Notes under the pieces: generated by a model
What the model was told of the DNA's origin: nothing
The model's input: only the letters and a program-made list of their open reading frames with translations
The model's database searches: none
Translations under genes and position numbers: made by a program
Source of the DNA: a virus
DNA length: 25,778 nt
Direction: 5' to 3' (one strand)
Virus record (IMG/VR): IMGVR_UViG_3300027896_000197
Location: 1-25,778 of that record
Shown: piece after piece, positions 8,348-25,778 of the stretch
Position numbering within the stretch: the first letter of the stretch is position 1
Layout of the letters: the number at the start of each line of letters is the position of its first letter

Positions 8348-9526
8348 TTATTTTGATATAAGTTTTAATTTGTGAAACATATCCCCCACGGATTTATTTT
8401 TTAGAAATTTATATAGATATTTTTTCGAAAATCCATATTTTTCACAAAATTCACTTTTATCTATTATTCTTTCTATGTGATTATCAGGAAATAGAAAATT
8501 GATATTTTTATAGATGGGACTATTATTAGTCATCGCATCCTCTAAAGAAGTTTCTGATAATCTCCAAAGTTTATGGTGTTTTGATTTTTTGTTCAACACT
8601 TCTTTTATTCCACTTAAACTTAGATTGTGTTCTCTACAAAACTTCAAAATTGACCGAAATTCATAAACAGTTCCATCCGGCGAACATAATTTTTTCGATA
8701 ACGGCGTCATATATGTAAAATTGGGGTCTATATGCCATCCTTTATGATGTTTTTTTATACCATCCAAAACATCTGTAATACCTTTTTTTTCTAAATGATA
8801 TTCTTTACAAAAATTACATAACCCCACTACTTTTACTATTTCGTTAGATGGTGAAAATATATTAGTTATAACGGCTTTTTTACTATCATTTTCTTCATAG
8901 TATTTAAGAAGGGAATTTCTCTGTTTTTCTATTCTTTCTGTGGTTAAAGATTTTGCAGTATTTTCTCTATGTTTTTTCTTACATTCTTTATTTAACCACC
9001 ACATATTTCCCGAGCGCATATTATTCTGTTCATTTTCCGTTTGAGAACAAAACCAATTTTTCATTTTTTCGGTGTGTTGTTTTTTTCTCTCATCCGTCCA
9101 ATATTCTTTTGCTTTTTTTCTTTGTTTTTCTCTTTGTTCAATTGTAACTATATGACCCGTTGTTCCATCTCCACCAAAAGTACAATTATACCCGTTATTT
9201 TTTGTATCATAATATTCTATTAATAACTTTTCAATTCTAATCAAATATTCCTTTGGACATTCTAACAATCTTACTACCCTAAAATTATCGATGCCATATT
9301 TTCTTATAGCATTTTCTATTTTGATTAAGTTTTGTGGTTTGTTATTCCTAAAATTATTCATTTCGCAATATACTCTTTTATACAGATTATTTGCTCGTCC
9401 GATATACATTTTACCGTTAATTTCATTTACCCACGCATATATTCCGGAAATTTTGGAGTTCCATTTTATACGCATTTTGTTTTTTAACATTATCAACGGA
9501 AGATTTAATATTTTTTCATTTTTCAT
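8348..9526 (-). CDS. GIY-YIG homing endonuclease with three NUMOD-like DNA-binding repeats
   Basis: The 392-residue protein starts with a GIY-YIG nuclease domain: GIYAWVNEINGKMYIG (residues 28-43), R51 in LYKR, a probable metal-binding E99 in RIEKLLIEYYDTKNNGYN and N114. A charged linker (about 130-215) leads to three repeats of roughly 45 residues, each with a phrase like SPxxEIxxV, an FCKEYxL helix and a closing HHKGW: about 220-265, 275-320 and 335-385. These repeats bind DNA in related phage and intron endonucleases. The gene lies immediately upstream of the sheath gene, and its stop is 74 bases before the sheath ATG. No strong Shine-Dalgarno is seen. It is free-standing: the sheath frame is intact, so there is no intron to explain it. 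Confidence 0.93.
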   Translation of the reverse strand: MKNEKILNLPLIMLKNKMRIKWNSKISGIYAWVNEINGKMYIGRANNLYKRVYCEMNNFRNNKPQNLIKIENAIRKYGIDNFRVVRLLECPKEYLIRIEKLLIEYYDTKNNGYNCTFGGDGTTGHIVTIEQREKQRKKAKEYWTDERKKQHTEKMKNWFCSQTENEQNNMRSGNMWWLNKECKKKHRENTAKSLTTERIEKQRNSLLKYYEENDSKKAVITNIFSPSNEIVKVVGLCNFCKEYHLEKKGITDVLDGIKKHHKGWHIDPNFTYMTPLSKKLCSPDGTVYEFRSILKFCREHNLSLSGIKEVLNKKSKHHKLWRLSETSLEDAMTNNSPIYKNINFLFPDNHIERIIDKSEFCEKYGFSKKYLYKFLKNKSVGDMFHKLKLISK

Positions 9527-9737: not shown

Positions 9738-9778
9738 GAAAAACGCTTTTGCAGACCGGTTCTGTGAGGGCGTTTTTC
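9738..9778. terminator. Bidirectional intrinsic terminator between HNH gene and the intergenic region
   Basis: GAAAAACGC at 9738-9746 pairs with GCGTTTTTC at 9770-9778 (9 bp), enclosing a smaller CAGA/TCTG hairpin at 9752-9764. Both orientations end in a U-run. The right arm includes the HNH stop codon (9777-9779), so it mainly ends the leftward endonuclease transcript, and it could also end a rightward one. Confidence 0.75.
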
Positions 9779-10346
9779 ATGTACATCGGTGAACTTTCCA
9801 TCCTTCGTAAAGGTTTCTATCTATGATAATTTTTTTATCATGTTCCAATTCTTCCAATAATTTGCGTGTCAAACTGATGGAAGAACCACTGATACTTAAT
9901 TCATCAACGTGTTTTGGATAAGATGGGAGTTGAATAAGTACCTGTTCTTTTTTGTTGTTTCGTTGACGTTTCTTTTCAGCATTTTTGACTGATACGTTAT
10001 GTGTTGTGTCGTGACATTTATTACATAAACACACCAATCCACGAATACCATCAACAAGAAGTATATGTTCTTCGCCGTGGTGTTTGTTACCTTCTTCTGT
10101 GTGATGAACCTGAAGACCTTCTCTACATCCACAAATACATTTCCAATTTGCCCGTCTTTTTACTTCATCGGATATAATCTGCCAGTAAGATGTTTTTAGA
10201 AAGTAAAAATATCTCAATTTGAGAATAACAGACTTTATTTCTTCCCAGTTGAGAGTTTGTATGATAGAATACATCTTTGCATACGACCCAGAACCAGTGT
10301 CTTGATCTGCTTTTAAATATTCAAAAATGAATTCCGATGGGGTCAT
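9777..10346 (-). CDS. HNH endonuclease, free-standing
   Basis: The 189-residue protein has an HNH nuclease core at about residues 55-117: YWQIISDEVKRRANWKCICG, LQVHHTEEG with the paired histidines, the CICGC and CNKC metal-site cysteines, and the closing CNKCHDTTHN. A helical N-terminus precedes it, and a basic linker (KNAEKKRQRNNKK) and a C-terminal helix follow. The gene starts 18 bases after the stop of the GIY-YIG gene, with a GGGGA-like ribosome site, and ends inside a terminator. It is one of three nuclease genes lying in a row between the coiled-coil protein gene and the sheath gene. Target and activity are not visible from the sequence. Confidence 0.9.
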   Translation of the reverse strand: MTPSEFIFEYLKADQDTGSGSYAKMYSIIQTLNWEEIKSVILKLRYFYFLKTSYWQIISDEVKRRANWKCICGCREGLQVHHTEEGNKHHGEEHILLVDGIRGLVCLCNKCHDTTHNVSVKNAEKKRQRNNKKEQVLIQLPSYPKHVDELSISGSSISLTRKLLEELEHDKKIIIDRNLYEGWKVHRCT

Positions 10347-10364: not shown

Positions 10365-11348
10365 TTAGATTTTAGTTCGTGAAAAATGATTTTTCCACCT
10401 ATTTTTATTAGAGTTCGAATAAATTTTATGTTTAACATTTTTAATGTATTCTTTAATTGAAAATCCGTTTGTGTTTGTGTATTTTATAAATCCTTTGTGT
10501 GTTAATGATTTTCCTTGTAATAAACATCGTAAACTTGTATCTGTTAAATTATTTTCTCTACAAAATTTAGGAATATCTGTAAAAGTATGTATTATACCAT
10601 TAATATCAATAACACGATATTCTGGATTATTTAAAATAGTTGTTGGTAAAGTCCATCCTTTATGTTGTTTAATTTTACCACGAATGACTTTATAAAGGTT
10701 CGCATTTCCTAAATTATTTTCTCTACAAAATTTATTTATATTTTTTATGGTAATAATTTCGCCAGTCGGAGATTTTAGTGTTATAGATTTAGAAATCCTA
10801 TCAATATAACCAGATTTAATCATACCAATTTTAGTTTTTATAGATACTTCTTCTCTGTGTTTTGGATCTCCCATCCAAAATTTAGATTTTTTTGACATTA
10901 TTTTTAATGAGGATTGATTATGATGTTTTCCTAAAAACGGATGCTCGTGATTTTGAAGCCACTTTTTTGTATTTAATGACATTCTCTGTTTTAATTCTTC
11001 CGAAACTTTTAACCCACATACTCCATCTCCACCATCTGTTAGATTACATAATGGACCCAATCCCAAATTAGACCTACCCAACCGTTTTATTTCTTTTATT
11101 TCTTTCAGTAGAGCATTCTGTTCGTCTATATTTTCTATGATTTTTTCATATTTTATTTTTCCACAACAACTTAATATTTTTTTAATTTTATAAAATAAAT
11201 GCGGATTGTTATTTGGATATTTATTTTTTAAAACGAGTTTTTCATGACAATACATTCTATTACCATATCCCTTTCCAACATAAAACGGTATATTGGTAAT
11301 GGGATTTATTAAATGATAGACATAAAATATGTTATTTTTTGGGTCCAT
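10365..11348 (-). CDS. GIY-YIG-type homing endonuclease, second subfamily
   Basis: The 327-residue protein begins with a variant GIY-YIG domain: FYVYHLINPITNIPFYVGKG (residues 8-27), R31 and a likely catalytic glutamate near 83 in LLKEIKEIKRLGR, then LCNLTDGGDG (100-109). Two C-terminal DNA-binding repeats like those of the other GIY-YIG protein follow, at about 190-235 and 240-285, each with an FCRENNL helix and an HKGW/HKGF ending. The domain differs clearly from the gene at 8348 (YVY/YVG instead of GIY/YIG), so the two are not recent copies. Its ATG lies within the end of the coiled-coil gene, a 17-base overlap. An AAGGAG 12 bases upstream may serve as ribosome site, though the spacing is long. 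Confidence 0.88.
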   Translation of the reverse strand: MDPKNNIFYVYHLINPITNIPFYVGKGYGNRMYCHEKLVLKNKYPNNNPHLFYKIKKILSCCGKIKYEKIIENIDEQNALLKEIKEIKRLGRSNLGLGPLCNLTDGGDGVCGLKVSEELKQRMSLNTKKWLQNHEHPFLGKHHNQSSLKIMSKKSKFWMGDPKHREEVSIKTKIGMIKSGYIDRISKSITLKSPTGEIITIKNINKFCRENNLGNANLYKVIRGKIKQHKGWTLPTTILNNPEYRVIDINGIIHTFTDIPKFCRENNLTDTSLRCLLQGKSLTHKGFIKYTNTNGFSIKEYIKNVKHKIYSNSNKNRWKNHFSRTKI

Positions 11349-11680: not shown

Positions 11681-14600
11681 TTAATTATGTAAAATAGCTG
11701 TCCATTGCCAATATCCATTAAACCCCGCATCGGGACCATTAACTTCAAATTGTGTTGCCGATTTATTAGTAGCAATTAAATATGGTGGGGATGATGGATA
11801 TGGTATTCCAGCACTTCCTGTGAAATCAAATATTACGTTATAAAACTCATTGGGAAACGGAGTACTGAATATTATAGTAGAAGGTATTGTAGCACCACTG
11901 GAAGGACCTCCAGCACGAGTGTAGATATTAACAAAATTATCAGCCCAAGAAGCTGTTCCGTGGAATCGATTAGCAGTTATCGTATCAGTACTTGGATTAT
12001 AAGTAATACTCGACGTAGCATAAACATTTTCATAATTTGGTAATGAACTATAATCTGCACCACCAGACATAAAGAGAATTGGTTGATCTCTATTCACGTT
12101 ACTTACTTGCACATATACCTTATCGGCATTTGATACTGCAACATTTTCTGCCCAACTTGCAGTACCAAAGAATGACACAGTATTAGAACCATTATTAGAC
12201 CCCGTAGCAGTTCCATACAAATAACTTGAAGATATCGAACTAGATGCCCAACTTGCACTTGTAGCGGTCAAAGATTGACTTGACCAAGAAGCCGATGTAG
12301 CATAAAATGAACGTGATGCCCACGAAGCAGAAAGTGATGCTGATGAGTAAAATGATGACAAAGATTGACTTGCCCACGAAGCAGTATCCGAATAGGTGGC
12401 CTTTGTAACTGTACCACCAGGCGCCCAAGAGGCAGATATTGTAAAAGAAGAACTATCTGCATACGAAGCTGTTCCTAGGAATTTTCCTCCCGTTGGAGTT
12501 ATATTTCCTGTATTATCAATACTTATTGAACCGCCTCCAACTGATGTGATTAAGAAATTGGTAGCACGAAATTCCATAGGTTCGTTAGCATTATTGGCAT
12601 CATTTACTGAAGACAAACTTACACCAGTCGTTAAACCTTGATGTCCATAAAAAGTTAAATTTTCATCAGTTGCTAAATATGACCTAATACTATTATTTTC
12701 ATAGGCCATATGATATGTAGGTCCAAGTTGTAAATATGAGGCAGTAGAACTTGGGGTTGATGGTGCCCATGAAGCACTCTTAGCATATGATGCAGACATT
12801 CCATGATTAGAATAAGACGCGGTCCCAGTTAACAACGGAGAGTCCACTTGAACGGTAGCTGTAAGTATCCCACCACCGTCAGTATAAACTCCAACTCCTG
12901 CTCTCACAGGGAGGTTACTTGATGTATTGGTTGCTAATAAAACATAATAAGGTCCATTAGGATTAGAAGTAATAATATTTACATTATTTGTGTTAACAGC
13001 CCAATTCGCACTTAATGATTGAGATGACCATGAAGCACTCTTAGCATAATCGCTGGGAGTTGATGGTGCGTATGAAGCACTTATAGATTTATTCGACCAG
13101 GAAGATGTTCCAACAAAACTGGTAGCGGTTATTGCATTAGTGCCAGGATTGTATGTAGCAGACCCGCCTTCATATACACTAGCATTTGCTGGAAAGGCAT
13201 TAGGTAATGTAAATAAAATTGGATCTTCTTGATTGGTGTTGTTTGTATTTATTAATACAGTTGTAGCATTTGTCGCGTTGGTGGCATTCGTAGCATTTGT
13301 AGCGCTAACAGCGAATGTAGAATATGAAGAACTTAATGATTGACTAGCCCACGAAGCACTACTTACACTTCCCACAGACTGAGTAACAATAGTTGTAATG
13401 GAATAAGAAGCAGTATCAGCATGTGAAGCACTTACCGCATGTATTGCCCATGAAGATGTCCCAACAAAACTGGTAGCAGTTATGGTATTAGTTCCTGGAT
13501 TGTATGTAGCAGACCCGCCTTCATATACACTAGCATTTGCTGGAAAGGCATTAGGTAAAGTAAATAAAATTGGGTCTTCTTGGTTAGTGTTATTTGTATT
13601 TATTAATACGGTTGTTGTGTTTGTTGCATTCGTAGCATTTGTAGCATTTGTAGCATCTATAGCGCTAACAGCGAATGTAGAATATGAAGAACTTAGTGAT
13701 TGAGATGCCCAAGAGGCACTTTTAGCATAATCCGATTGTGGTGTTGATGGAGCCCAAGATGCACTTAATGACTGACTTGCCCAAGATGCACTTATTGCAT
13801 AGTTACTTGGTGTTGATGGAGCCCAAGATGCACTTATTGATTTATTTGCCCACGAAGATGTTCCAATAAAATTAGTAGCAGTTATCGCATTAGTACCAGG
13901 ATTGTATGTAGCGGCGCCTCCCTCATACACACTAGCATTTGCTGGGAAAGCATTTGGTAAAGTAAATAAAATTGGATCTTCTTGATTGGTGTTGTTTGTA
14001 TTTATTAATACAGTTGTAGTATTTGTAGCGTTAGTTGCATTTGTAGCATTAACAGAAAATGCAGAACTTAACGATTGAGATGCCCAAGAGGCACTAATCA
14101 CACTTCCTACAGACTGAGTAACAATAGTTGTAATGGAATAAGAAGCAGTATCAGCATAACTCGCACTTAACGATTGGGCCGCCCATGAGGAACTTATTGC
14201 CCAAGAAGCAGTGCCATTAAATAGAGACGCTGTAATTACTGAACAACTTATATTACCTGTTACATCTAATGTATTTATAGCACTATTATTACCAATAGAT
14301 ACTTTAACTGCATCAACACCAGTACCACCTATTACACAAGTATTTGACGCAGATACTTTAGCATTGTATCCTATAGCAATTGATTTTGTTACGTTAAGAG
14401 CGGAATTCAACGCATCAGCATTAGTACCAATAAATATAGTATTACTTCCTGTTTTTGCATTATATCCAGCACTGTTTCCAATTTGAACTGCATTAGTAGC
14501 ATTGGTTGACCTTTGTCCAGCATTATAACCAATTTGAACTGCATTGGATGCAGTTATAGAATAATATCCAACATTATAACCAATTTGAACCGTATTATTT

Positions 14601-15817
14601 ACGTTAGTAGCGTTAGCCCCAGCATTGGGACCAATTTGAACTGCATTAGTAGCATTAGTTGAATATTGTCCAGTACTATTTCCAATTTGAACTGCGTTCT
14701 GAGCATTAGTTGAATATGTTCCAGCGCCACTACCAATTTGAACCGTATTATCTACATTAGTAGCAAAAGTTCCAACACCTGCACCAATTTGAATTGCACT
14801 AGAGGCAGTAGTTGAATTTTGTCCGGCAGCAATACCAATTTGAATTGCATCACTAGCATTAGTTGAATTTTGTCCGGCACCATTACCAATCTGAATTGCG
14901 TTGGTCGCATTTATTGAATTTCCACCAGCATTATAACCAATTTGAACTGCATTGGATGCAGTCGTTGAATTATATCCTACCTGATAACCAATTTGAACAG
15001 TATTATCAGCAGTCGTTGAATTATATCCTACCTGATAACCAATTTGAACTGCATTGGATGCAGTTGTAGAATAATATCCCACATATGGTCCAATTTGAAC
15101 TGCACTAACAGCTAACATTGAACGATATCCGGATGAAACACCTATTTGAATTGCACTGTCTGCCGCATATGAATTATATCCTGCCTGATATCCTATTTGA
15201 ACTGCATTATTTGCATTTGTTGATTGATACCCAGCTTGGTTGCCGATTTGAACCACTGAATTTGAACTAGTAGAATAATACCCAGCATAATCCCCCATTT
15301 GAACAGCTTGGTAACTATCATTATTTCTATTGATATTATAACCAATTTGTACTATTGATGTATCTGGAACTCCTACTCCCAGTCCTCCGATTTTAGCACC
15401 AGCATTTGCAATAATAATACTACAAGAAGCATTGCCATTATATACGGCATTTCCATTAATTACTGACCACGGATATGATGAACTAATTGAACTAGATGCC
15501 CACGAAGCACTCACTGCTGCACTACTTGGTGTTGACGGAGCCCAAGATGCGGATAATGACTGACTGGCCCACGAAGCACTCACTGTTGCACTACTTGGTG
15601 TTGACGGAGCCCAGGATGCGGAGACTGCATTATTAGCATATGAACTTGATATGCTACTAGATGCCCATGAACAAGATAATTGGTATTGTTGTGGATATAA
15701 GTTAGGGACATAACTTGATGACACTGCTTGCAATGCCAATGAGGCACTACTAATCAACAAGCCATCTGGCAAAATGACTCTACTTAAAGGATTATATTGT
15801 GCAATATATGTTTTCAT
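11681..15817 (-). CDS. Giant repeat-built tail fibre / adhesin, 1378 aa
   Basis: The protein is built almost wholly of repeats. An N-terminal block of SASWASQSLSASWAPSTP-type repeats (about 30-115) leads to about 18 copies of a 17-residue repeat (AVQIGYNAGYNSTTASN type, about 155-450) that resembles the left-handed beta-roll of YadA-like trimeric adhesins. More SASWA blocks follow, with three long near-identical modules around FTLPNAFPANASVYEGG. The last 80 residues form a distinct cap ending in GYWQWTAILHN, like the tip of other phage fibres. Such fibres trimerise and bind the host surface. No signal peptide is present, and no intramolecular chaperone is recognised. The gene follows the tailspike gene after 17 bases, with only a weak ribosome site. 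Confidence 0.88.
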   Translation of the reverse strand: MKTYIAQYNPLSRVILPDGLLISSASLALQAVSSSYVPNLYPQQYQLSCSWASSSISSSYANNAVSASWAPSTPSSATVSASWASQSLSASWAPSTPSSAAVSASWASSSISSSYPWSVINGNAVYNGNASCSIIIANAGAKIGGLGVGVPDTSIVQIGYNINRNNDSYQAVQMGDYAGYYSTSSNSVVQIGNQAGYQSTNANNAVQIGYQAGYNSYAADSAIQIGVSSGYRSMLAVSAVQIGPYVGYYSTTASNAVQIGYQVGYNSTTADNTVQIGYQVGYNSTTASNAVQIGYNAGGNSINATNAIQIGNGAGQNSTNASDAIQIGIAAGQNSTTASSAIQIGAGVGTFATNVDNTVQIGSGAGTYSTNAQNAVQIGNSTGQYSTNATNAVQIGPNAGANATNVNNTVQIGYNVGYYSITASNAVQIGYNAGQRSTNATNAVQIGNSAGYNAKTGSNTIFIGTNADALNSALNVTKSIAIGYNAKVSASNTCVIGGTGVDAVKVSIGNNSAINTLDVTGNISCSVITASLFNGTASWAISSSWAAQSLSASYADTASYSITTIVTQSVGSVISASWASQSLSSAFSVNATNATNATNTTTVLINTNNTNQEDPILFTLPNAFPANASVYEGGAATYNPGTNAITATNFIGTSSWANKSISASWAPSTPSNYAISASWASQSLSASWAPSTPQSDYAKSASWASQSLSSSYSTFAVSAIDATNATNATNATNTTTVLINTNNTNQEDPILFTLPNAFPANASVYEGGSATYNPGTNTITATSFVGTSSWAIHAVSASHADTASYSITTIVTQSVGSVSSASWASQSLSSSYSTFAVSATNATNATNATNATTVLINTNNTNQEDPILFTLPNAFPANASVYEGGSATYNPGTNAITATSFVGTSSWSNKSISASYAPSTPSDYAKSASWSSQSLSANWAVNTNNVNIITSNPNGPYYVLLATNTSSNLPVRAGVGVYTDGGGILTATVQVDSPLLTGTASYSNHGMSASYAKSASWAPSTPSSTASYLQLGPTYHMAYENNSIRSYLATDENLTFYGHQGLTTGVSLSSVNDANNANEPMEFRATNFLITSVGGGSISIDNTGNITPTGGKFLGTASYADSSSFTISASWAPGGTVTKATYSDTASWASQSLSSFYSSASLSASWASRSFYATSASWSSQSLTATSASWASSSISSSYLYGTATGSNNGSNTVSFFGTASWAENVAVSNADKVYVQVSNVNRDQPILFMSGGADYSSLPNYENVYATSSITYNPSTDTITANRFHGTASWADNFVNIYTRAGGPSSGATIPSTIIFSTPFPNEFYNVIFDFTGSAGIPYPSSPPYLIATNKSATQFEVNGPDAGFNGYWQWTAILHN
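13101..14069. repeat. Three long near-identical modules within the fibre gene
   Basis: Copies lie at about 13101-13334, 13452-13694 and 13854-14069. Each encodes the NTNNTNQEDPILFTLPN / FPANASVYEGG / YNPGTN..TATSF module and a variable run of NAT triplets. Differences are mostly scattered single bases, with length changes in the NAT runs, as expected from unequal crossing-over. Confidence 0.88.
14460..15358. repeat. Array of 51-base repeats encoding a beta-roll
   Basis: About 18 units of mostly 51 bases (17 residues) share the core VQIG or IQIG, two diverged ones (IFIG, IAIG) ending the run. Neighbouring units differ at many third positions, so the array is older than the long modules to its left. 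Confidence 0.88.
15495..15550. repeat. 56-base SASWA repeat shared with another gene
   Basis: This stretch differs from 18610-18665, in a separate gene, by one base. A further close copy follows at about 15567-15621. The encoded phrase is ASWAPSTPSSAAVSASWAS. Confidence 0.9.
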
Positions 15818-15834
15818 AATATGTTCTATTATTG

Positions 15835-18297
15835 TTAATGAGTCCCTATTTCTTGGCTATATAATGAAGACCCATCCGACCAATATTTCATTAATGCACC
15901 TTTGAGATTAATAATCATATAATTGGTTACTGAACCAACTGTGCCGCCTATGATAGCAGCCGTAGGGGCACTTGCGTTTTGTATAAATATTCCACCATTT
16001 CCATAATAATGCTGTGCGTGAGCATCTCCCATTACATCAAGCTTATAGCCAGGAGCGTTTGTTCCAATACCAACATTACCATCATTATTGATCCGCATCC
16101 GCTCAACCACACTTGTTCCTTCCGTAGTCAGGAACGAAAGCGCAGAGCTATATCCAGAGAATTTAAGACCATATGCACCCAAATGAATTGTAGAAATAAT
16201 ATTCAAAGCGCCCCCAACAGTACCGTCCACACCGAACCCTCCCGAAAATGCGGGGCTTCCTGGGTCTGTCGGAGTGTTCACCCACAGAGAACCGCCAGTC
16301 GATTTTTTGCCAACGGTCAACGCACCGAAACTACTATCTGAGTCATTCGACCACGTTACTAAATTAGTACCAGTATTGATTCCAACATTACCATCATTAT
16401 TGATCCGCATCCGCTCAACCACACTTGTTCCTTCCGTAGTCAGGAACGAAAGCGCAGAACTGTACCCGCTGAATTTCAAGCCGTAAGCGCCAAGATTCAC
16501 GGTGGAAACGAGATTCAATGTTCCCCCTACTGTCCCATCCACCCCAAACCCTCCTGAGTATTGTTGTTCGCCTGGGTCAACAGGAACGTTTACCCATAAC
16601 GACCCGCTGTTTTGTCTGTTGCCGATAGTCAACGCACCGTAACTATTGTCCCCATAGCCAGACCATGTTATTGAGTTCGTTCCTGTGCCGATATTAACGT
16701 TTCCGTTTTCGTTGACATTGATTCGCTGGTTTCCTTGGCCATCTGCAATAATGATGTTGCCCGACAACGCAGCATCAAGTCCTGAGACATTGGCTCCAAT
16801 AATTGTATTATATGAACCGCTAACAATTCCCCTCCCCGTGTTGTATCCAAATGCGCTGTTATTGCTTCCCGATTTATTATCGAATAATACATTGCCACCC
16901 ATTGCAGTGTTGTATGACCCGTCGGCATTCAACACCAACGACAATGTACCATTGGCAGTATTGAAAATCCCGTTCGTGTTATAATTGAGCGAATCGGCCC
17001 CTGCGCCGGTATTGAAATTCCCTGTCAAGTTAGATGATAGAACGCCGTATCCCAATGCAGTGTTATAGTGCCCATTCACGTTGTTTGACAATGCTAATCC
17101 ACCGCCAACAACGGTGTTTCCATCGCTACTTCCAGGGCCAACTCCTATTGATATTCCACTTACTAACATGTCCTGTGAAATAACCCTTTTTCCATTACTG
17201 GTACCATCAAGCAGGGTTCCATAACCGCCGCCCATTGAAAAGTTGTCAAGTAACGAACCTATGGCTGTATATTTACAGTCCTTGAAAGTCGTGTTGGTAG
17301 CGGTGTTCAATCCGCTAGCCTCCACCCCTATCCAGCAACTATCGAATGTCCAGTCTGATACGTTGTTAAGGTCTATCCGTCCGCCTATCAAGCATTCTCG
17401 AAAAGTGATTGCTGAAGAGAATCCGCCTCCCGAAACTTGTGGAGCAACAATGTTCGTAGGTGTACCCTCAAACCAAATTCGGCTGAAGGTTGCAAGCATC
17501 GGTTGAAATGGAATATTATTGCTGGCGATGATAGCAACTCCATAGCTAGTGTTGCTTTCGATGACACAATCCTCGACGTTCGGCATGCCATTGTCCAATT
17601 CAATACCGATGCGGTTTAATCTAAATGTTGAATCGTGTACTCTCAACACAGTCGAATTTCCAGACATTCTAAGACCAATGCCGTTTCTCGCACCAGAGCA
17701 TTTCGACAACACGCTGGAATTGACTGTTGCATTGGCGTTAAAGCCTGCTCCTAGGAAATCGGAACATGTCACCGAATCGATGTTGCACATTCCCCCGAAC
17801 GTAATCCCGTTTGTACAAACCGATTCACCGCTCAAGTAGAGATTGCGAATCGTTGGCAGAAAATTCGTCGAACAGTCTATCGCTGTACCCAAATTCGTTG
17901 GAAATCGGAGAATTGTTTCCGAATAGGTTTCCCCTCCATAGTCTATCACAGGAACAGCACCCTCCAATGCATATCTAGCGTAAGGCAAATACAAAGTTTT
18001 GTATATTCTATAGTTCCCTGGCGGGAAATAGACATGTGTCGGATTGTGGCTGATTGCCGACTGAATTGCCGCTGTATCATCAGTAGCATTATCGCCTTTC
18101 GCCCCCCAAAATTTCACGTTGGAAGAATCCCACACATCAGCTTTGGCTATTAACGGCTTATCAAAGGCGTTTGTCCCAAAGAATGTCTGGTTAATGTTAG
18201 TGCCTGCGGGCGTAACACTTGTACCTGGAGTTACATTTGCAAACAATGATATTGTCATCATTGTCATTAGTATTACAATATTAAATAGTCTTTTCAT
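15835..18297 (-). CDS. Tailspike-like protein with pectate-lyase-type beta-helix and apparent signal peptide
   Basis: The 820-residue protein starts like a secreted protein: MKRLF, a hydrophobic core (NIVILMTMMTISLF) and a likely cut near FA|NV at residue 20. A pectate-lyase-3-type start follows (VKFWGAKGDNATDDTAAIQ, about residues 62-80, then THVYFPPGNYRIYKTL), with right-handed beta-helix coils to about residue 340. Next are repeats of the GxxNTALGYGVLSSN type (about 400-510), then two 104-residue modules (SLWVN, GGFGVDGTVGG, VVERMRINNDGNVGI), and NAPGYKLDVMGD near the end. The fold suggests a polysaccharide-binding or -cleaving spike; no catalytic residues can be named. Base composition is richer in G+C than its neighbours, suggesting a recent origin elsewhere. 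It starts 5 bases after the upstream gene's stop. Confidence 0.82.
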   Translation of the reverse strand: MKRLFNIVILMTMMTISLFANVTPGTSVTPAGTNINQTFFGTNAFDKPLIAKADVWDSSNVKFWGAKGDNATDDTAAIQSAISHNPTHVYFPPGNYRIYKTLYLPYARYALEGAVPVIDYGGETYSETILRFPTNLGTAIDCSTNFLPTIRNLYLSGESVCTNGITFGGMCNIDSVTCSDFLGAGFNANATVNSSVLSKCSGARNGIGLRMSGNSTVLRVHDSTFRLNRIGIELDNGMPNVEDCVIESNTSYGVAIIASNNIPFQPMLATFSRIWFEGTPTNIVAPQVSGGGFSSAITFRECLIGGRIDLNNVSDWTFDSCWIGVEASGLNTATNTTFKDCKYTAIGSLLDNFSMGGGYGTLLDGTSNGKRVISQDMLVSGISIGVGPGSSDGNTVVGGGLALSNNVNGHYNTALGYGVLSSNLTGNFNTGAGADSLNYNTNGIFNTANGTLSLVLNADGSYNTAMGGNVLFDNKSGSNNSAFGYNTGRGIVSGSYNTIIGANVSGLDAALSGNIIIADGQGNQRINVNENGNVNIGTGTNSITWSGYGDNSYGALTIGNRQNSGSLWVNVPVDPGEQQYSGGFGVDGTVGGTLNLVSTVNLGAYGLKFSGYSSALSFLTTEGTSVVERMRINNDGNVGINTGTNLVTWSNDSDSSFGALTVGKKSTGGSLWVNTPTDPGSPAFSGGFGVDGTVGGALNIISTIHLGAYGLKFSGYSSALSFLTTEGTSVVERMRINNDGNVGIGTNAPGYKLDVMGDAHAQHYYGNGGIFIQNASAPTAAIIGGTVGSVTNYMIINLKGALMKYWSDGSSLYSQEIGTH
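16070..16458. repeat. 312-base in-frame duplication in the tailspike gene
   Basis: A 77-base block is identical at 16070-16146 and 16382-16458, exactly 312 bases (104 codons) apart. The rest of the two modules is similar but diverged. This part encodes the VVERMRINNDGNVGI segment. Confidence 0.92.
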
Positions 18298-18302
18298 AAT
18301 AG

Positions 18303-18746
18303 TTATAAAGCCGTTGCGGTAATCATTCCACTTGAGTTAATGGAGAGTCTCCATTGTTGTCCGTTTTCATCGGTCAAAGATACATATGAAGCAGATGGCG
18401 TATTGGTGTAAACTGTGCCGATGTTAATAAATGTGTTAAGACCATAAGCAGGCGTTTGGTCTATTGCTAACGTTACAATGCCACTATCGTTTACTAACGT
18501 TACAGGATAAACATTTGTATCAGTAGATTGTAAATATAGACACGTATTACTACCTGAAAAGTTAGATAATGTGCTTGTGGTTAATGCATATGAAGAACTT
18601 AGTGATTGAGATGCCCACGAAGCACTCACTGCTGCACTACTTGGTGTTGATGGAGCCCAAGATGCACTTATCGCCCAAGAAGCAGTTACAGGACTTGGAA
18701 AAATAAATTTAGTCGGATTAAATACTACTGTGTTAAGATTGTTCAT
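18303..18746 (-). CDS. Small SASWA-repeat structural protein, 147 aa
   Basis: Residues about 20-55 carry the same SASWAPSTPSS / SASWASQSLSSSYA repeats as the giant fibre, followed by a compact beta-rich C-terminal domain (YPVTLVNDSGIVTLAIDQTP, then GTVYTNTPSASYVSLTDENG and GQQWRLSINSSGMITATAL). It looks like a short fibre or fibre adaptor: the repeat is a stalk and the C-terminal domain a tip. One 56-base stretch of the repeat is nearly identical to DNA in the gene at 11681-15817, so sequence has moved between the two genes. It is the first phage gene after the TnpB insertion; no Shine-Dalgarno is visible, only very AT-rich DNA upstream. Confidence 0.75.
   Translation of the reverse strand: MNNLNTVVFNPTKFIFPSPVTASWAISASWAPSTPSSAAVSASWASQSLSSSYALTTSTLSNFSGSNTCLYLQSTDTNVYPVTLVNDSGIVTLAIDQTPAYGLNTFINIGTVYTNTPSASYVSLTDENGQQWRLSINSSGMITATAL
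18610..18665. repeat. 56-base SASWA repeat, partner of 15495-15550
   Basis: Identical to 15495-15550 except for one C/T difference. It lies in the small SASWA protein gene. Confidence 0.9.
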
Positions 18747-18956
18747 ATAATCATAAATATATAAATCTATATAATCTTATCATATATATGTTATATATAT
18801 TCCATCACATCTTGTTATCGATATATCTAAATTATGTCAATTCATATTTTTTCTCGTTGCGGAAACCCCTATCCCTTTAGGGTAGGGGAGGAGCAACGAA
18901 ATATCTCACTTTCTTTGTTGTTTCGTGTTTCTTCACAATATGTATATCCAGTAATA

Positions 18957-20117
18957 ATGAAAACATACAACATTCAACTGATTTTTGATAATGATGAAGA
19001 TAAGCAATCTATCATAAAGTCGCTTGAACTAAAGAGAAATGCTTTCAATATCATATCTAAAATCCGTTTCGGTATGAAGTCCTGTAATGGTCTTATGCCT
19101 CTCCACCAACGATGCTATAAGATGGTTAGAGACCAACTTCCAATGCTTCCAAGTCAGTTCGTCATTAAGGCAGAACAAGACGTAGTTGCCAAATACCAAT
19201 CTCTTCGGTCTAACTTTCACAAAATCACAGAACCAGTTGAGACAGACCGATTGAATATCCAACTGGACACTCGTATCTATACTTGGATTAATAATGCCCA
19301 CGATGCCATTAAACTTACGACTTGTAATGGTCGTATTACTACCAAACTTCTCAAGTATGATAAGGTCAATGAACTATTTTCCAAATACAAACTCAAAGAC
19401 CCATCTCTTTTCGTGAGAGACGATAAAGTATTTCTTTCTGTTGTTTTTGATGACACCGCTTCGTTTAATGACAACAAAAAATGTATTGGAGTTGATTTGG
19501 GTCTTAAACGACTTGCTTCTACCAGTGAAGGCATCATTACCAAAGGCAATGAGTTTAACCGAACCAAACGCAAGATACGTTGGAACAGACGAAAACTCCA
19601 ATCCCATAAATCACACTCTGCCAGAGTTAAACGAACCAATCTCCGCAGACGTGAATACCATTTCTCAAAGAACTACATACACAATATTGTAAATCATCTT
19701 CTCACCACAAAGGCAAATACCATTGTGGTTGAGGACTTAACCAAGATTAAGTCCAAATCCAAAGGACGAAGATTTAACAACAGAAACTCACAAATGCCAT
19801 ATTTCCTTTTGAGGAACATATTGACCTACAAGGCATCTGCTCTCGGTAAGAGAGTAGTAATCGTTAAACCCCATTATACTTCGCAGTTAGACCACAGAGG
19901 TCTTGACAACGGAGTAAGAAAAGGTTGTAGGTATTATGCCCTTGATAAAGTCGTATTGGACGCAGACCTTAACGCTGCGAACAATATTACTTTTAGATAT
20001 GACAAAGAACACTCCATCTCGTGCTCTGCACTGGACGGACAGGTTGTCGTCAACCAACCAATCGTCAGAGGTTCTTCTCTGGCAAGCACCGACCCTTTAG
20101 GGTCGTGTGTATTTTGA
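18957..20117 (+). CDS. tnpB: TnpB-family RNA-guided nuclease, zinc-ribbon cysteines missing
   Basis: From the ATG at 18957 the protein has 386 residues; an in-frame ATG at 18834 is rejected because it would translate the left-end hairpin. The RuvC-like nuclease triad is complete: IGVDLGLKRLAS (D180), TIVVEDLTKIK (E259) and VVLDADLNAANNI (D335/D337). A basic helix rich in Arg/Lys (RTKRKIRWNRRKLQSH, RVKRTNLRRREY) lies between the first two, as in TnpB. In most TnpB the TSQ segment is followed by a CxxC...CxxC zinc ribbon; here it reads PHYTSQLDHRGLDNGVRKG, with no Cys pairs. TnpB cuts DNA guided by an omega-RNA and helps the element persist. The 3' coding end overlaps the likely omega-RNA. Confidence 0.9.
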   Translation: MKTYNIQLIFDNDEDKQSIIKSLELKRNAFNIISKIRFGMKSCNGLMPLHQRCYKMVRDQLPMLPSQFVIKAEQDVVAKYQSLRSNFHKITEPVETDRLNIQLDTRIYTWINNAHDAIKLTTCNGRITTKLLKYDKVNELFSKYKLKDPSLFVRDDKVFLSVVFDDTASFNDNKKCIGVDLGLKRLASTSEGIITKGNEFNRTKRKIRWNRRKLQSHKSHSARVKRTNLRRREYHFSKNYIHNIVNHLLTTKANTIVVEDLTKIKSKSKGRRFNNRNSQMPYFLLRNILTYKASALGKRVVIVKPHYTSQLDHRGLDNGVRKGCRYYALDKVVLDADLNAANNITFRYDKEHSISCSALDGQVVVNQPIVRGSSLASTDPLGSCVF

Positions 20118-20151
20118 CCCCACCCGCTAAAGCAAGTGGGATTTCTTGCCA
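20080..20151 (+). ncRNA. Candidate omega-RNA (reRNA) 3' scaffold of the TnpB element
   Basis: TGGCAAG at 20080-20086 pairs with CTTGCCA at 20145-20151 and encloses two hairpins: CGACCC-TTTA-GGGTCG (20090-20105) and CCCAC/GTGGG (20119-20140, with an inner GC-TAAA-GC). The result is a three-way junction at the end of tnpB and the element's right end, where omega-RNAs of known TnpB systems lie. The guide would then start near 20152, in flanking phage DNA. The 5' end of the RNA cannot be seen. Confidence 0.5.
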
Positions 20152-20158
20152 CTGAGAA

Positions 20159-21018: not shown

Positions 21019-22050
21019 TTAGTTAGTTTCTACTGTGTTACTTATTTCCATGCAAAACACAGTTCCCTGATTATTTGCGTTTCCAGCTTTTACGATTTGA
21101 AATGTTTTTCCTGCAAATGTTCCTGTATTACAAACAAATATTTGACCATCTACGAAATTCGTTGTTGGATGTAATATATGATAAAATCCTCTCATACGAC
21201 CCCTTATAGTAGATGTTGTATTCTCATGTACCCATACTGGGCTTACCCATAAAGAATTATCAACTGAGTTTGGAAATTGAGTAATTCCCAACAAATATGC
21301 TGAACTTCCTTTATTGGCGTCTCCATGTTTCCCACAAGTTATACTGACTGCGGCGCCACTAAATGAACGTTGCATATAATGAGTGGATGTTGCGGCATTT
21401 ACTAATGTCAATGCATCTAATGTATCATTTCCACCTGCATATGAATTTCCTTCTGAACTTCTTCCAATGATTACACATTTTGATGTATCTACACTTCCTG
21501 ATTTTATAGAGTAAATATCTCCAAAAGCAAATCCAATATAAACTCCGGGAGAATCTCCTGAATTTATGAATCCATACATACTACTGGAATCTGCAAAAAT
21601 TATCCATGCTCTTTCAATAGAATTTATAGTAGCACTTTTTCTTATTCCAACCGCATTTACTCCAGTATTCAATGGATTTTGAGCTACTGTTGGAAAGGGA
21701 TTGCTACCCGTTATATTAAAACTAGATGCAGTAAATTGTGTAATATAATCATATCCCGACATTCGAGCATTTTGTAATCCACCGCCACTTCCACAATCTG
21801 ACATAAACATTGTTGCTTGAGAACCAGTTGGTTGAACAAATATACCACAACTACCACTATCGGGTATTGCTAAACCAGCCGCAGGACCAATTGATCCTGT
21901 TTTTGTCCATCCTGCTCCTGGCTTAGAACCATACCCAGTAATAAGACAAGCATTCAATACTGCCAACAATGACCCAGACGTTCCTCCTGTTAATACAGGA
22001 TGCCCAATATCATTAGAACTATAAATTGTAAATTGACTTGTATATGCCAT
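21019..22050 (-). CDS. Tandem virion-protein paralogue, copy 4 in transcription order, 343 aa
   Basis: One of four neighbouring paralogues. The shared plan is MAYTSQFTIYSS, then SGSLLAVLNACLITGYGSKP / GAGWTKTGS near residues 25-52, a middle with GYDYITQ, an IRKSATINSIERAWIIFADS strand pair, FGDIYSLKSG, and a C-terminal block (RGRMRGFYHILHP, FAGKTFQIVK) ending in ISNTVETN. The pattern of short beta-strands without signal peptide suits a virion surface protein. I have seen this GYGSK..AGW-type family in tailed phages but know no function for it. It starts 4 bases after the stop of the copy before it, with no ribosome site, so translation is probably coupled. Confidence 0.72.
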   Translation of the reverse strand: MAYTSQFTIYSSNDIGHPVLTGGTSGSLLAVLNACLITGYGSKPGAGWTKTGSIGPAAGLAIPDSGSCGIFVQPTGSQATMFMSDCGSGGGLQNARMSGYDYITQFTASSFNITGSNPFPTVAQNPLNTGVNAVGIRKSATINSIERAWIIFADSSSMYGFINSGDSPGVYIGFAFGDIYSIKSGSVDTSKCVIIGRSSEGNSYAGGNDTLDALTLVNAATSTHYMQRSFSGAAVSITCGKHGDANKGSSAYLLGITQFPNSVDNSLWVSPVWVHENTTSTIRGRMRGFYHILHPTTNFVDGQIFVCNTGTFAGKTFQIVKAGNANNQGTVFCMEISNTVETN

Positions 22051-25253: not shown

Positions 25254-25778
25254 TTAAGCGTTTGATATTTCCGTTATTATAGTCCAATTCTGCGCCGTTC
25301 CTAATGTGGTGATATTAAATCTCAATTTATCTCCGCTAGTTACAGTAGATAAAGATCTAGTATATACTTCATAAGATGAAGTTGGTAAAATAACCGTCCC
25401 CACAAGAGTTGGTATAAATAATCCATTGTAAGATGATTTTTCAATATTAATAGATGAACCGGTAGTTTCCACAGTTTGGGTTCTCAATGACAATCGTTTA
25501 ACATTCCAAGATATACTCGAACTTCCATCCAATGGATTAAATGGGATTGTTATCTCGGCGGCATCGGCACCGATCAAAACGGGTGTATATGCAGAACATA
25601 AAACTATTGAACGTCCGTATGTAAACGTCCCAACGGAAGGTGCCCAAGATGCACTCAAGGATTGACTTGCCCAACTCGATGATACTGAGGACCCTTGAGA
25701 ACCACCGGGTGCCCATGAAGCACTTACTGCATACGAAGAACTCAAGGATTGACTTGCCCAACTCGATGATACTGAGGA
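25254..25778 (-). CDS. SASWA-repeat fibre protein, C-terminal part, start lies beyond the right edge
   Basis: The frame is open to the last base of the window: the codons at 25778-25746 read SSVSSSWASQSL and continue straight into the protein, so a start at the TTG codon 25745 is rejected. The visible 174 residues begin with SASWA repeats (about the first 50) and end in a beta-rich domain (FTYGRSIVLCSAYTPVLIGA, ISWNVKRLSLRTQTVETT, then SSYEVYTRSLSTVTSGDKLR and WTIITEISNA). It has the same repeat-stalk-plus-tip plan as the 147-residue protein. The repeat DNA at the very edge is duplicated within 100 bases, so the upstream part is probably a longer repeat stalk. Confidence 0.78.
   Translation of the reverse strand, partial: SSVSSSWASQSLSSSYAVSASWAPGGSQGSSVSSSWASQSLSASWAPSVGTFTYGRSIVLCSAYTPVLIGADAAEITIPFNPLDGSSSISWNVKRLSLRTQTVETTGSSINIEKSSYNGLFIPTLVGTVILPTSSYEVYTRSLSTVTSGDKLRFNITTLGTAQNWTIITEISNA

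What the first reader, a model, noticed from the sequence alone, without database searches (positions are those of the whole stretch)
18849..20158. TnpB element with a complete RuvC site but no zinc-ribbon cysteines, and a foldable omega-RNA
Seen: D/E/D motifs intact, CxxC pairs absent after TSQ, shared CCCTTTAGGG hairpins at both ends, and a three-way-junction fold at 20080-20151 closed by TGGCAAG/CTTGCCA. Known: TnpB nucleases use an RNA from the element's right end with the flank as guide. Inference: this phage carries a compact TnpB variant, without its own transposase, whose guide would match the phage's own fibre region. That would let it act against related phages lacking the insertion, much as homing endonucleases do.
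Basis: partly seen in the sequence, partly recalled or inferred. Interest (0 to 1): 0.75.

Follow-up and report, generated by a model that had tools for sequence, protein, structure and literature searches.

The report
Phage transposon encoding zinc-free TnpB nuclease
A phage DNA fragment carries a small IS605-type transposon whose TnpB nuclease, probably RNA-guided, has lost its usual zinc-binding cysteines, and whose inherited guide matches the end of a rival phage transposon rather than a phage gene, so two selfish elements may be pitted against each other.

Summary
Relatives with unrelated flanks fix the element at 18846-20118 (1273 bp). It lies 3' of TTCAT and ends in TTGAC, the layout of IS200/IS605 elements without tnpA. 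The TnpB (386 aa) keeps RuvC D180/E259/D337, and these and a cysteine-free TNB hold in its relatives at 36-91% identity, so this is a lineage trait. It evolves under purifying selection (dN/dS about 0.09). The omega-RNA is real: covarying stems and a GTCAA/TTGAC pseudoknot, and a model built without the window's subfamily finds it at E 8e-10. That flank is an inverted left end of a second transposon family carrying a zinc-ribbon TnpB. The uninterrupted site exists in three other viral contigs, and the predicted guide plus TTCAT matches it there. Best reading: a trans-mobilised IS605 element whose guide targets a rival transposon's end. Cleavage activity is inferred. Cysteine-free TnpBs also occur on cellular plasmids.

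The parts
18841..18845 (+). TTCAT, insertion target and predicted TAM
   Evidence: TTCAT lies within 32 nt upstream of the left-end GGAA-hairpin in 16 of 18 left ends with different flanks (alignment). On the bottom strand it is ATGAA of the interrupted LE2.
18846..20118 (+). whole IS200/IS605-family element without tnpA (1273 bp)
   Evidence: Homology to L002-L006 begins and ends at these bases with unrelated flanks; joined flanks occur uninterrupted in L044, L052, L053.
18854..18899 (+). left-end structure: outer stem TCGTTGC/GCAACGA, guide GGAAA (18861-18865), hairpin CCCCTATCCC-TTTA-GGGTAGGGG (18866-18888)
   Evidence: 62/63 identity with the left end of the complete tnpA+tnpB element in L005; conserved in all close relatives.
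18957..20117 (+). tnpB, 386 aa, RuvC D180/E259/D337, TNB domain without zinc cysteines
   Evidence: AF2 model pLDDT 80 matches Cas12f, TnpB and Fanzor structures; dN 0.053, dS 0.627 against L002.
20004..20118 (+). omega-RNA scaffold (5' boundary not determined), overlapping the 3' end of tnpB
   Evidence: Covarying alignment A5 of 23 sequences; model R1, built without this subfamily, hits 20026-20118 at E 7.9e-10.
20042..20059 (+). stem GGTTG/CAACC with loop GTCAA (20049-20053)
   Evidence: 4 of 5 pairs show double compensatory changes across relatives.
20086..20110 (+). right-end hairpin GCAC-C-GACCC-TTTA-GGGTC-GTGT with CAAG 5' of it
20114..20118 (+). TTGAC, right-end cleavage site; pairs with GTCAA 20049-20053 (pseudoknot)
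   Evidence: 99.1% of cells paired; the two ATCAA members have TTGAT.
20119..20138 (+). predicted guide CCCACCCGCTAAAGCAAGTG
   Evidence: Follows the pseudoknot end; TTCAT plus the first 12-15 nt of the guide matches exactly in L044, L052 and L053.
20119..20156 (-). LE2 relic, outer part: left end of a second IS605-type element, interrupted by this element
   Evidence: Matches LE2 of TnpB2 elements in L044 and L053 and MITE-like copies in L040, L051.
18826..18845 (-). LE2 relic, inner part, on the other side of the insertion
   Evidence: Joined with 20119 onward: 56/58 to L053, 53/54 to L044, 40/40 to L052.

Best explanation
The feature is a non-autonomous IS200/IS605-family element (18846-20118). 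Shown by comparison: it sits 3' of TTCAT, ends in TTGAC, has subterminal hairpins with matching guide triplets, and encodes a TnpB with an intact RuvC triad, a cysteine-free TNB domain and a canonical omega-RNA closed by a GTCAA/TTGAC pseudoknot. Inferred: a Y1 TnpA of the L005 type moves it in trans as single-stranded DNA. TnpB binds the omega-RNA made from its own 3' end plus about 16-20 nt of flank and cuts TTCAT-flanked copies of the empty site, so that repair restores or spreads the element. Here the inherited guide is the left end of a second transposon family (LE2), so the expected targets are uninterrupted LE2 copies in co-infecting or co-resident phages, not a fibre gene.
For: Boundaries with unrelated flanks. 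Complete tnpA+tnpB relative L005 with 62/63 identical left end (Y1_Tnp E 3e-36). TnpA homologues in related viral contigs G002, G003, G004, G008. Omega-RNA covariation and held-out model. RuvC triad invariant and purifying selection. Fold match to Cas12f and TnpB. Empty site and exact TAM+guide matches. Gene-drive behaviour of IS605 TnpB shown by others in plasmids (PMC11870625); TAM equals the TnpA target in ISDra2 (PMC8612924).
Against: No expression, RNA or cleavage data. The zinc ribbon is absent, and no characterised TnpB without one was found in the papers searched. The guide is self-complementary (CCCAC...GTGGG) and the flank can pair with the right-end GGCAAG, which could hinder folding or target binding. 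Only 3 viral contigs with an intact target were found.
Confidence: 0.72

Rival explanations
1. A dying TnpB that lost its zinc ribbon and nuclease function, carried along by a mobile end pair.
For: No zinc cysteines; no tnpA in the contig; truncated TnpB copies exist in L024/L048 and L002.
Against: dN/dS about 0.09; D/E/D invariant in 20 proteins; the cysteine-free TNB has its own conserved motif (G319, R321, G323, R325, D337) at 36-91% identity, so the loss is ancient and maintained.
Confidence: 0.12
2. A TldR-like exapted RNA-guided repressor that binds without cutting.
For: Phage-borne, TnpB-derived, conserved guide scaffold; phage TldRs are known (PMC13418256).
Against: Catalytic triad intact in all 20. 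Guides differ in nearly every copy, as expected for a mobile element rather than a fixed regulator.
Confidence: 0.06
3. One reading: a TnpB homing-like weapon aimed at the fibre locus of sibling phages, using the three-way-junction RNA at 20080-20151.
For: The fold exists (z -5.4); the element lies between tail genes; an empty site exists.
Against: The 3' arm lies outside the element; its sequence recurs in L024 only because that copy is also inserted in LE2. The conserved fold is another one. The target is LE2 wherever LE2 lies.
Confidence: 0.08

Closest known systems
ISDra2 (IS200/IS605) TnpB and omega-RNA, Deinococcus radiodurans
   Same: TTNAT-type target equal to the TAM, TnpB with D-E-D RuvC, RNA from the 3' end of tnpB plus right end, pseudoknotted scaffold, no target duplication
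   Different: Target TTCAT rather than TTGAT; TNB has no CCCC zinc finger (ISDra2: C331, C334, C351, C354; PMC10097598); no tnpA in this copy; phage-borne
IS1341-type TnpB-only elements
   Same: tnpB alone between IS605-like ends
   Different: Here a close relative with tnpA (L005) is known, and the omega-RNA and TAM were inferred by comparison
AsCas12f1 and other Cas12f effectors
   Same: Best fold matches of the AF2 model; compact RuvC effector
   Different: Cas12f has a zinc-finger TNB and CRISPR guides; this one is a transposon component
Homing endonuclease genes of phages (GIY-YIG, HNH)
   Same: Selfish cutting of the empty allele
   Different: RNA-guided, and the target site changes with each insertion
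Cysteine-free TnpBs on cellular plasmids (Thiodictyon IS607-type, Methylovirgula)
   Same: TSQ-x-D...G-x-R-x-G-x-K-F-Y...AD-x-NAA motif without zinc cysteines
   Different: Longer (462-467 aa); the Thiodictyon copy is next to an IS607 transposase

Membership tests
IS200/IS605 family element | Insertion 3' of a short fixed target with no target duplication | tested here: met
   TTCAT in 16 of 18 left ends; the empty site joins TTCAT directly to the right flank
IS200/IS605 family element | Subterminal hairpins at both ends with guide bases pairing to the cleavage sites | tested here: met
   GGAA + hairpin at left (TTC), CAAG/CAAA + hairpin at right (TTG) in relatives
IS200/IS605 family element | Y1 HUH transposase TnpA | tested here: not met
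   Absent from the contig and thus from this copy; present in relative L005 between the same ends. tnpB-only members are placed in the family, with some uncertainty (PMC3627910)
TnpB RNA-guided nuclease | RuvC D-E-D triad and OrfB_IS605/TNB domains over curated cut-offs | tested here: met
TnpB RNA-guided nuclease | C4 zinc finger in the TNB (part of the motif in PMC3627910) | tested here: not met
   No CxxC in any of the retrieved relatives. PMC10711439 says 'many', not all, TnpBs have it
TnpB RNA-guided nuclease | Conserved structured RNA at the 3' end of tnpB/right end | tested here: met
   the model also hits right ends of zinc-bearing Gloeobacter (E 1e-7) and Bacteroides (E 2.5e-4) TnpB genes
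TnpB RNA-guided nuclease | Guide-dependent cleavage of TAM-flanked DNA | not testable with these tools
   Needs bench work
TldR (nuclease-dead TnpB-derived repressor) | Mutated RuvC triad | tested here: not met
   Triad intact

The most novel reading that the evidence does not exclude
A clade of zinc-free TnpB nucleases has spread in huge phages, where transposons of different families insert into each other's ends and so acquire guides that cut the rival family: a transposon-against-transposon gene drive inside phage populations. Two element subtypes (the window's, and the 75% identical copy in L048) occupy the same TTCAT of LE2, as repeated targeting would give.
Probability: 0.25. Interest if true: 0.68.

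Novelty: new variant of a known kind. Interest (0 to 1): 0.45.

Why it matters
If the cysteine-free TnpBs cut DNA, the zinc ribbon would not be essential to TnpB, which bears on how the TNB domain diversified in Cas12 enzymes and offers compact zinc-independent nucleases. The nested insertion gives a concrete, testable case in which the guide of one phage transposon is predicted to attack another.

Tried and rejected
Rfam at gathering threshold found nothing in the window. Searches of phage genomes with the right flank and of viral contigs with the neighbouring 229-aa protein found no phage with the same flanks. The neighbouring 820-aa spike gave only partial matches, and 21019-22050 found nothing in G004/G007. 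Two genome-contig scans gave no relative; their short patterns make this weak evidence of absence. A search by phylum around a plasmid locus was not possible. The paper that classifies TnpB diversity (10.1073/pnas.2308224120) is not held, so whether it names this clade is unchecked. The idea that 20119-20152 is part of the element was rejected, because it is LE2 in three contigs without the element. The idea that L024 and the window share one old insertion is not excluded, but their elements are 75% identical.

Full report
What the window is. The window is a 25,778-bp IMG/VR virus record from the tail region of a myovirus (tail sheath 5049-8273). Its sheath is 54-64% identical to those of two contigs of 303 and 369 kb, so it probably comes from a jumbo-type phage.

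The element. The TnpB gene at 18957-20117 (ATG start supported by relatives) scores over the curated cut-off for RNA-guided endonuclease TnpB. Close relatives at 70-91% protein identity lie in five other viral contigs, and more distant ones (down to 36%) in about 20 more loci. In the close set, similarity starts immediately after TTCAT and stops immediately after TTGAC, with unrelated DNA outside. Across the wider set TTCAT precedes the left hairpin in 16 of 18 cases, and every right end is TTGAC or TTGAT (the right ends were picked by that motif after the hairpin). The element is therefore 18846-20118. In IS200/IS605 elements short guide sequences beside the hairpins pair with the cleavage sites (my own knowledge). 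Here GAA beside the left hairpin can pair with TTC of TTCAT, and CAA beside the right hairpin with TTG of TTGAC, in relatives as well.

Transposase. No Y1 TnpA is in the window. L005 carries a divergent tnpA (Y1_Tnp E 3e-36) between a left end that is 62/63 identical to the window's and a tnpB only about 70% identical at the DNA level. Ends this alike suggest that a TnpA of this type can act on both. TnpA relatives also lie in the contigs G002, G003, G004 and G008. Movement in trans is inferred.

The protein. D180, E259 and D337 are invariant in 20 aligned proteins. The region after TSQ has no CxxC pair in any retrieved relative; instead it follows roughly TSQ-x-D-x(3-4)-G-x(3)-G-x-R-x-G-x-R-x(6-8)-D-x-N. 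ISDra2 TnpB binds zinc there through C331, C334, C351 and C354 (PMC10097598), and a C4 zinc finger is part of the motif shared by TnpB and Fanzor in an early survey (PMC3627910), although a later one says 'many' have it (PMC10711439). Against L002, dN is 0.053 and dS 0.627, so the protein is under purifying selection. The AlphaFold2 model (pLDDT 80, pTM 0.53) best matches Cas12f, with TnpB and Fanzor structures also found. Cysteine-free TnpBs also occur on plasmids of Thiodictyon (next to an IS607 transposase) and Methylovirgula. The trait is therefore neither unique to this phage nor limited to viruses.

The RNA. In an alignment of 23 right ends made without structural guidance, RNAalifold finds 15 pairs, 11 of them with double compensatory changes. 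For the structure including the pseudoknot, 94.1% of cells pair, against 32-40% when the partners are slid, and 76 cells change on both sides against 23 in shuffles. The loop GTCAA pairs with the terminal TTGAC in 99% of cells, and the two members with ATCAA end in TTGAT. A covariance model built without the window's subfamily finds 20026-20118 at E 8e-10. It also finds right ends of zinc-bearing TnpB genes in Gloeobacter (E 1e-7) and Bacteroides (E 2.5e-4). The RNA is thus a standard IS605-type omega-RNA. Codon identity at conserved residues is also highest where the RNA overlaps tnpB in the comparison with L002 (0.87 against 0.65-0.79).

The flank and the guide. Joined window flanks match uninterrupted DNA in L053 (56/58), L044 (53/54) and L052 (40/40). 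In L044 and L053 this DNA is the left end of another element (LE2) followed by a TnpB gene; in L044 that TnpB has an ordinary zinc ribbon (CSCG...CPMC). MITE-like copies of LE2 occur in L040 and L051. L048 (same contig as L024) holds a TnpB2 element with a truncated copy of element 1 inserted at the same TTCAT; that copy is 97-98% like L004/L005 but 75% like the window's. So two subtypes sit in the same site, by independent insertion, by targeted repair or by old descent; the data do not decide. The guide CCCACCCGCTAAAGCAAGTG with TTCAT is matched exactly in L044 and L052, and with one mismatch at position 18 in L053.

How it most likely works. By established knowledge of IS605 elements, TnpB with an RNA carrying the 3' flank as guide cuts the empty site next to the TAM, which would keep the element after excision (PMC8612924) and can drive it through multicopy replicons (PMC11870625). 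Applied here (inference), the element would cut uninterrupted LE2 copies. A caveat is that this guide is self-complementary, so activity may be lower than in other family members.

Verdict. This is a well-resolved new variant of a known kind: an IS605-type element in a phage with a zinc-free TnpB clade and a guide that happens to target another transposon.

Noticed in passing
window 8348-9526 (-), 9777-10346 (-), 10365-11348 (-): Three adjacent genes just beyond the tail sheath look like homing endonucleases: two with GIY-YIG and NUMOD-like domains and one small protein with an HNH-like CxC...HH...CxxCH pattern (by eye).
   Followed up: partly
IMG/VR contig of L018 (G004, 369 kb): 12 matches to this TnpB in one huge phage contig, plus a TnpA fragment; G007 has 5 and G008 has 6.
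   Followed up: partly
L048 791-812: The nested element is deleted from exactly the TTCAT junction to about codon 290 of tnpB, leaving the right end intact; possibly a failed excision.
   Followed up: partly
L002 7133-7597: A second, truncated cysteine-free TnpB with an intact omega-RNA and TTGAC right end lies about 2 kb from the full copy in the same phage.
   Followed up: partly
window 15835-18297 (-): Pectate-lyase-like tail spike candidate whose N-terminus (MKRLFNIVILMTMMTISLFA) reads like a signal peptide, odd for a virion protein.
   Followed up: no
window 11681-15817, 18303-18746, 25254-25778 (-): Tail proteins rich in ASWAPSTP/SASWASQSLSSSY repeats, similar in style to the end of L053.
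   Followed up: no
window 1728-2222 (-): 5'-3' deoxyribonucleotidase of phage type (phrog_2643).
   Followed up: no
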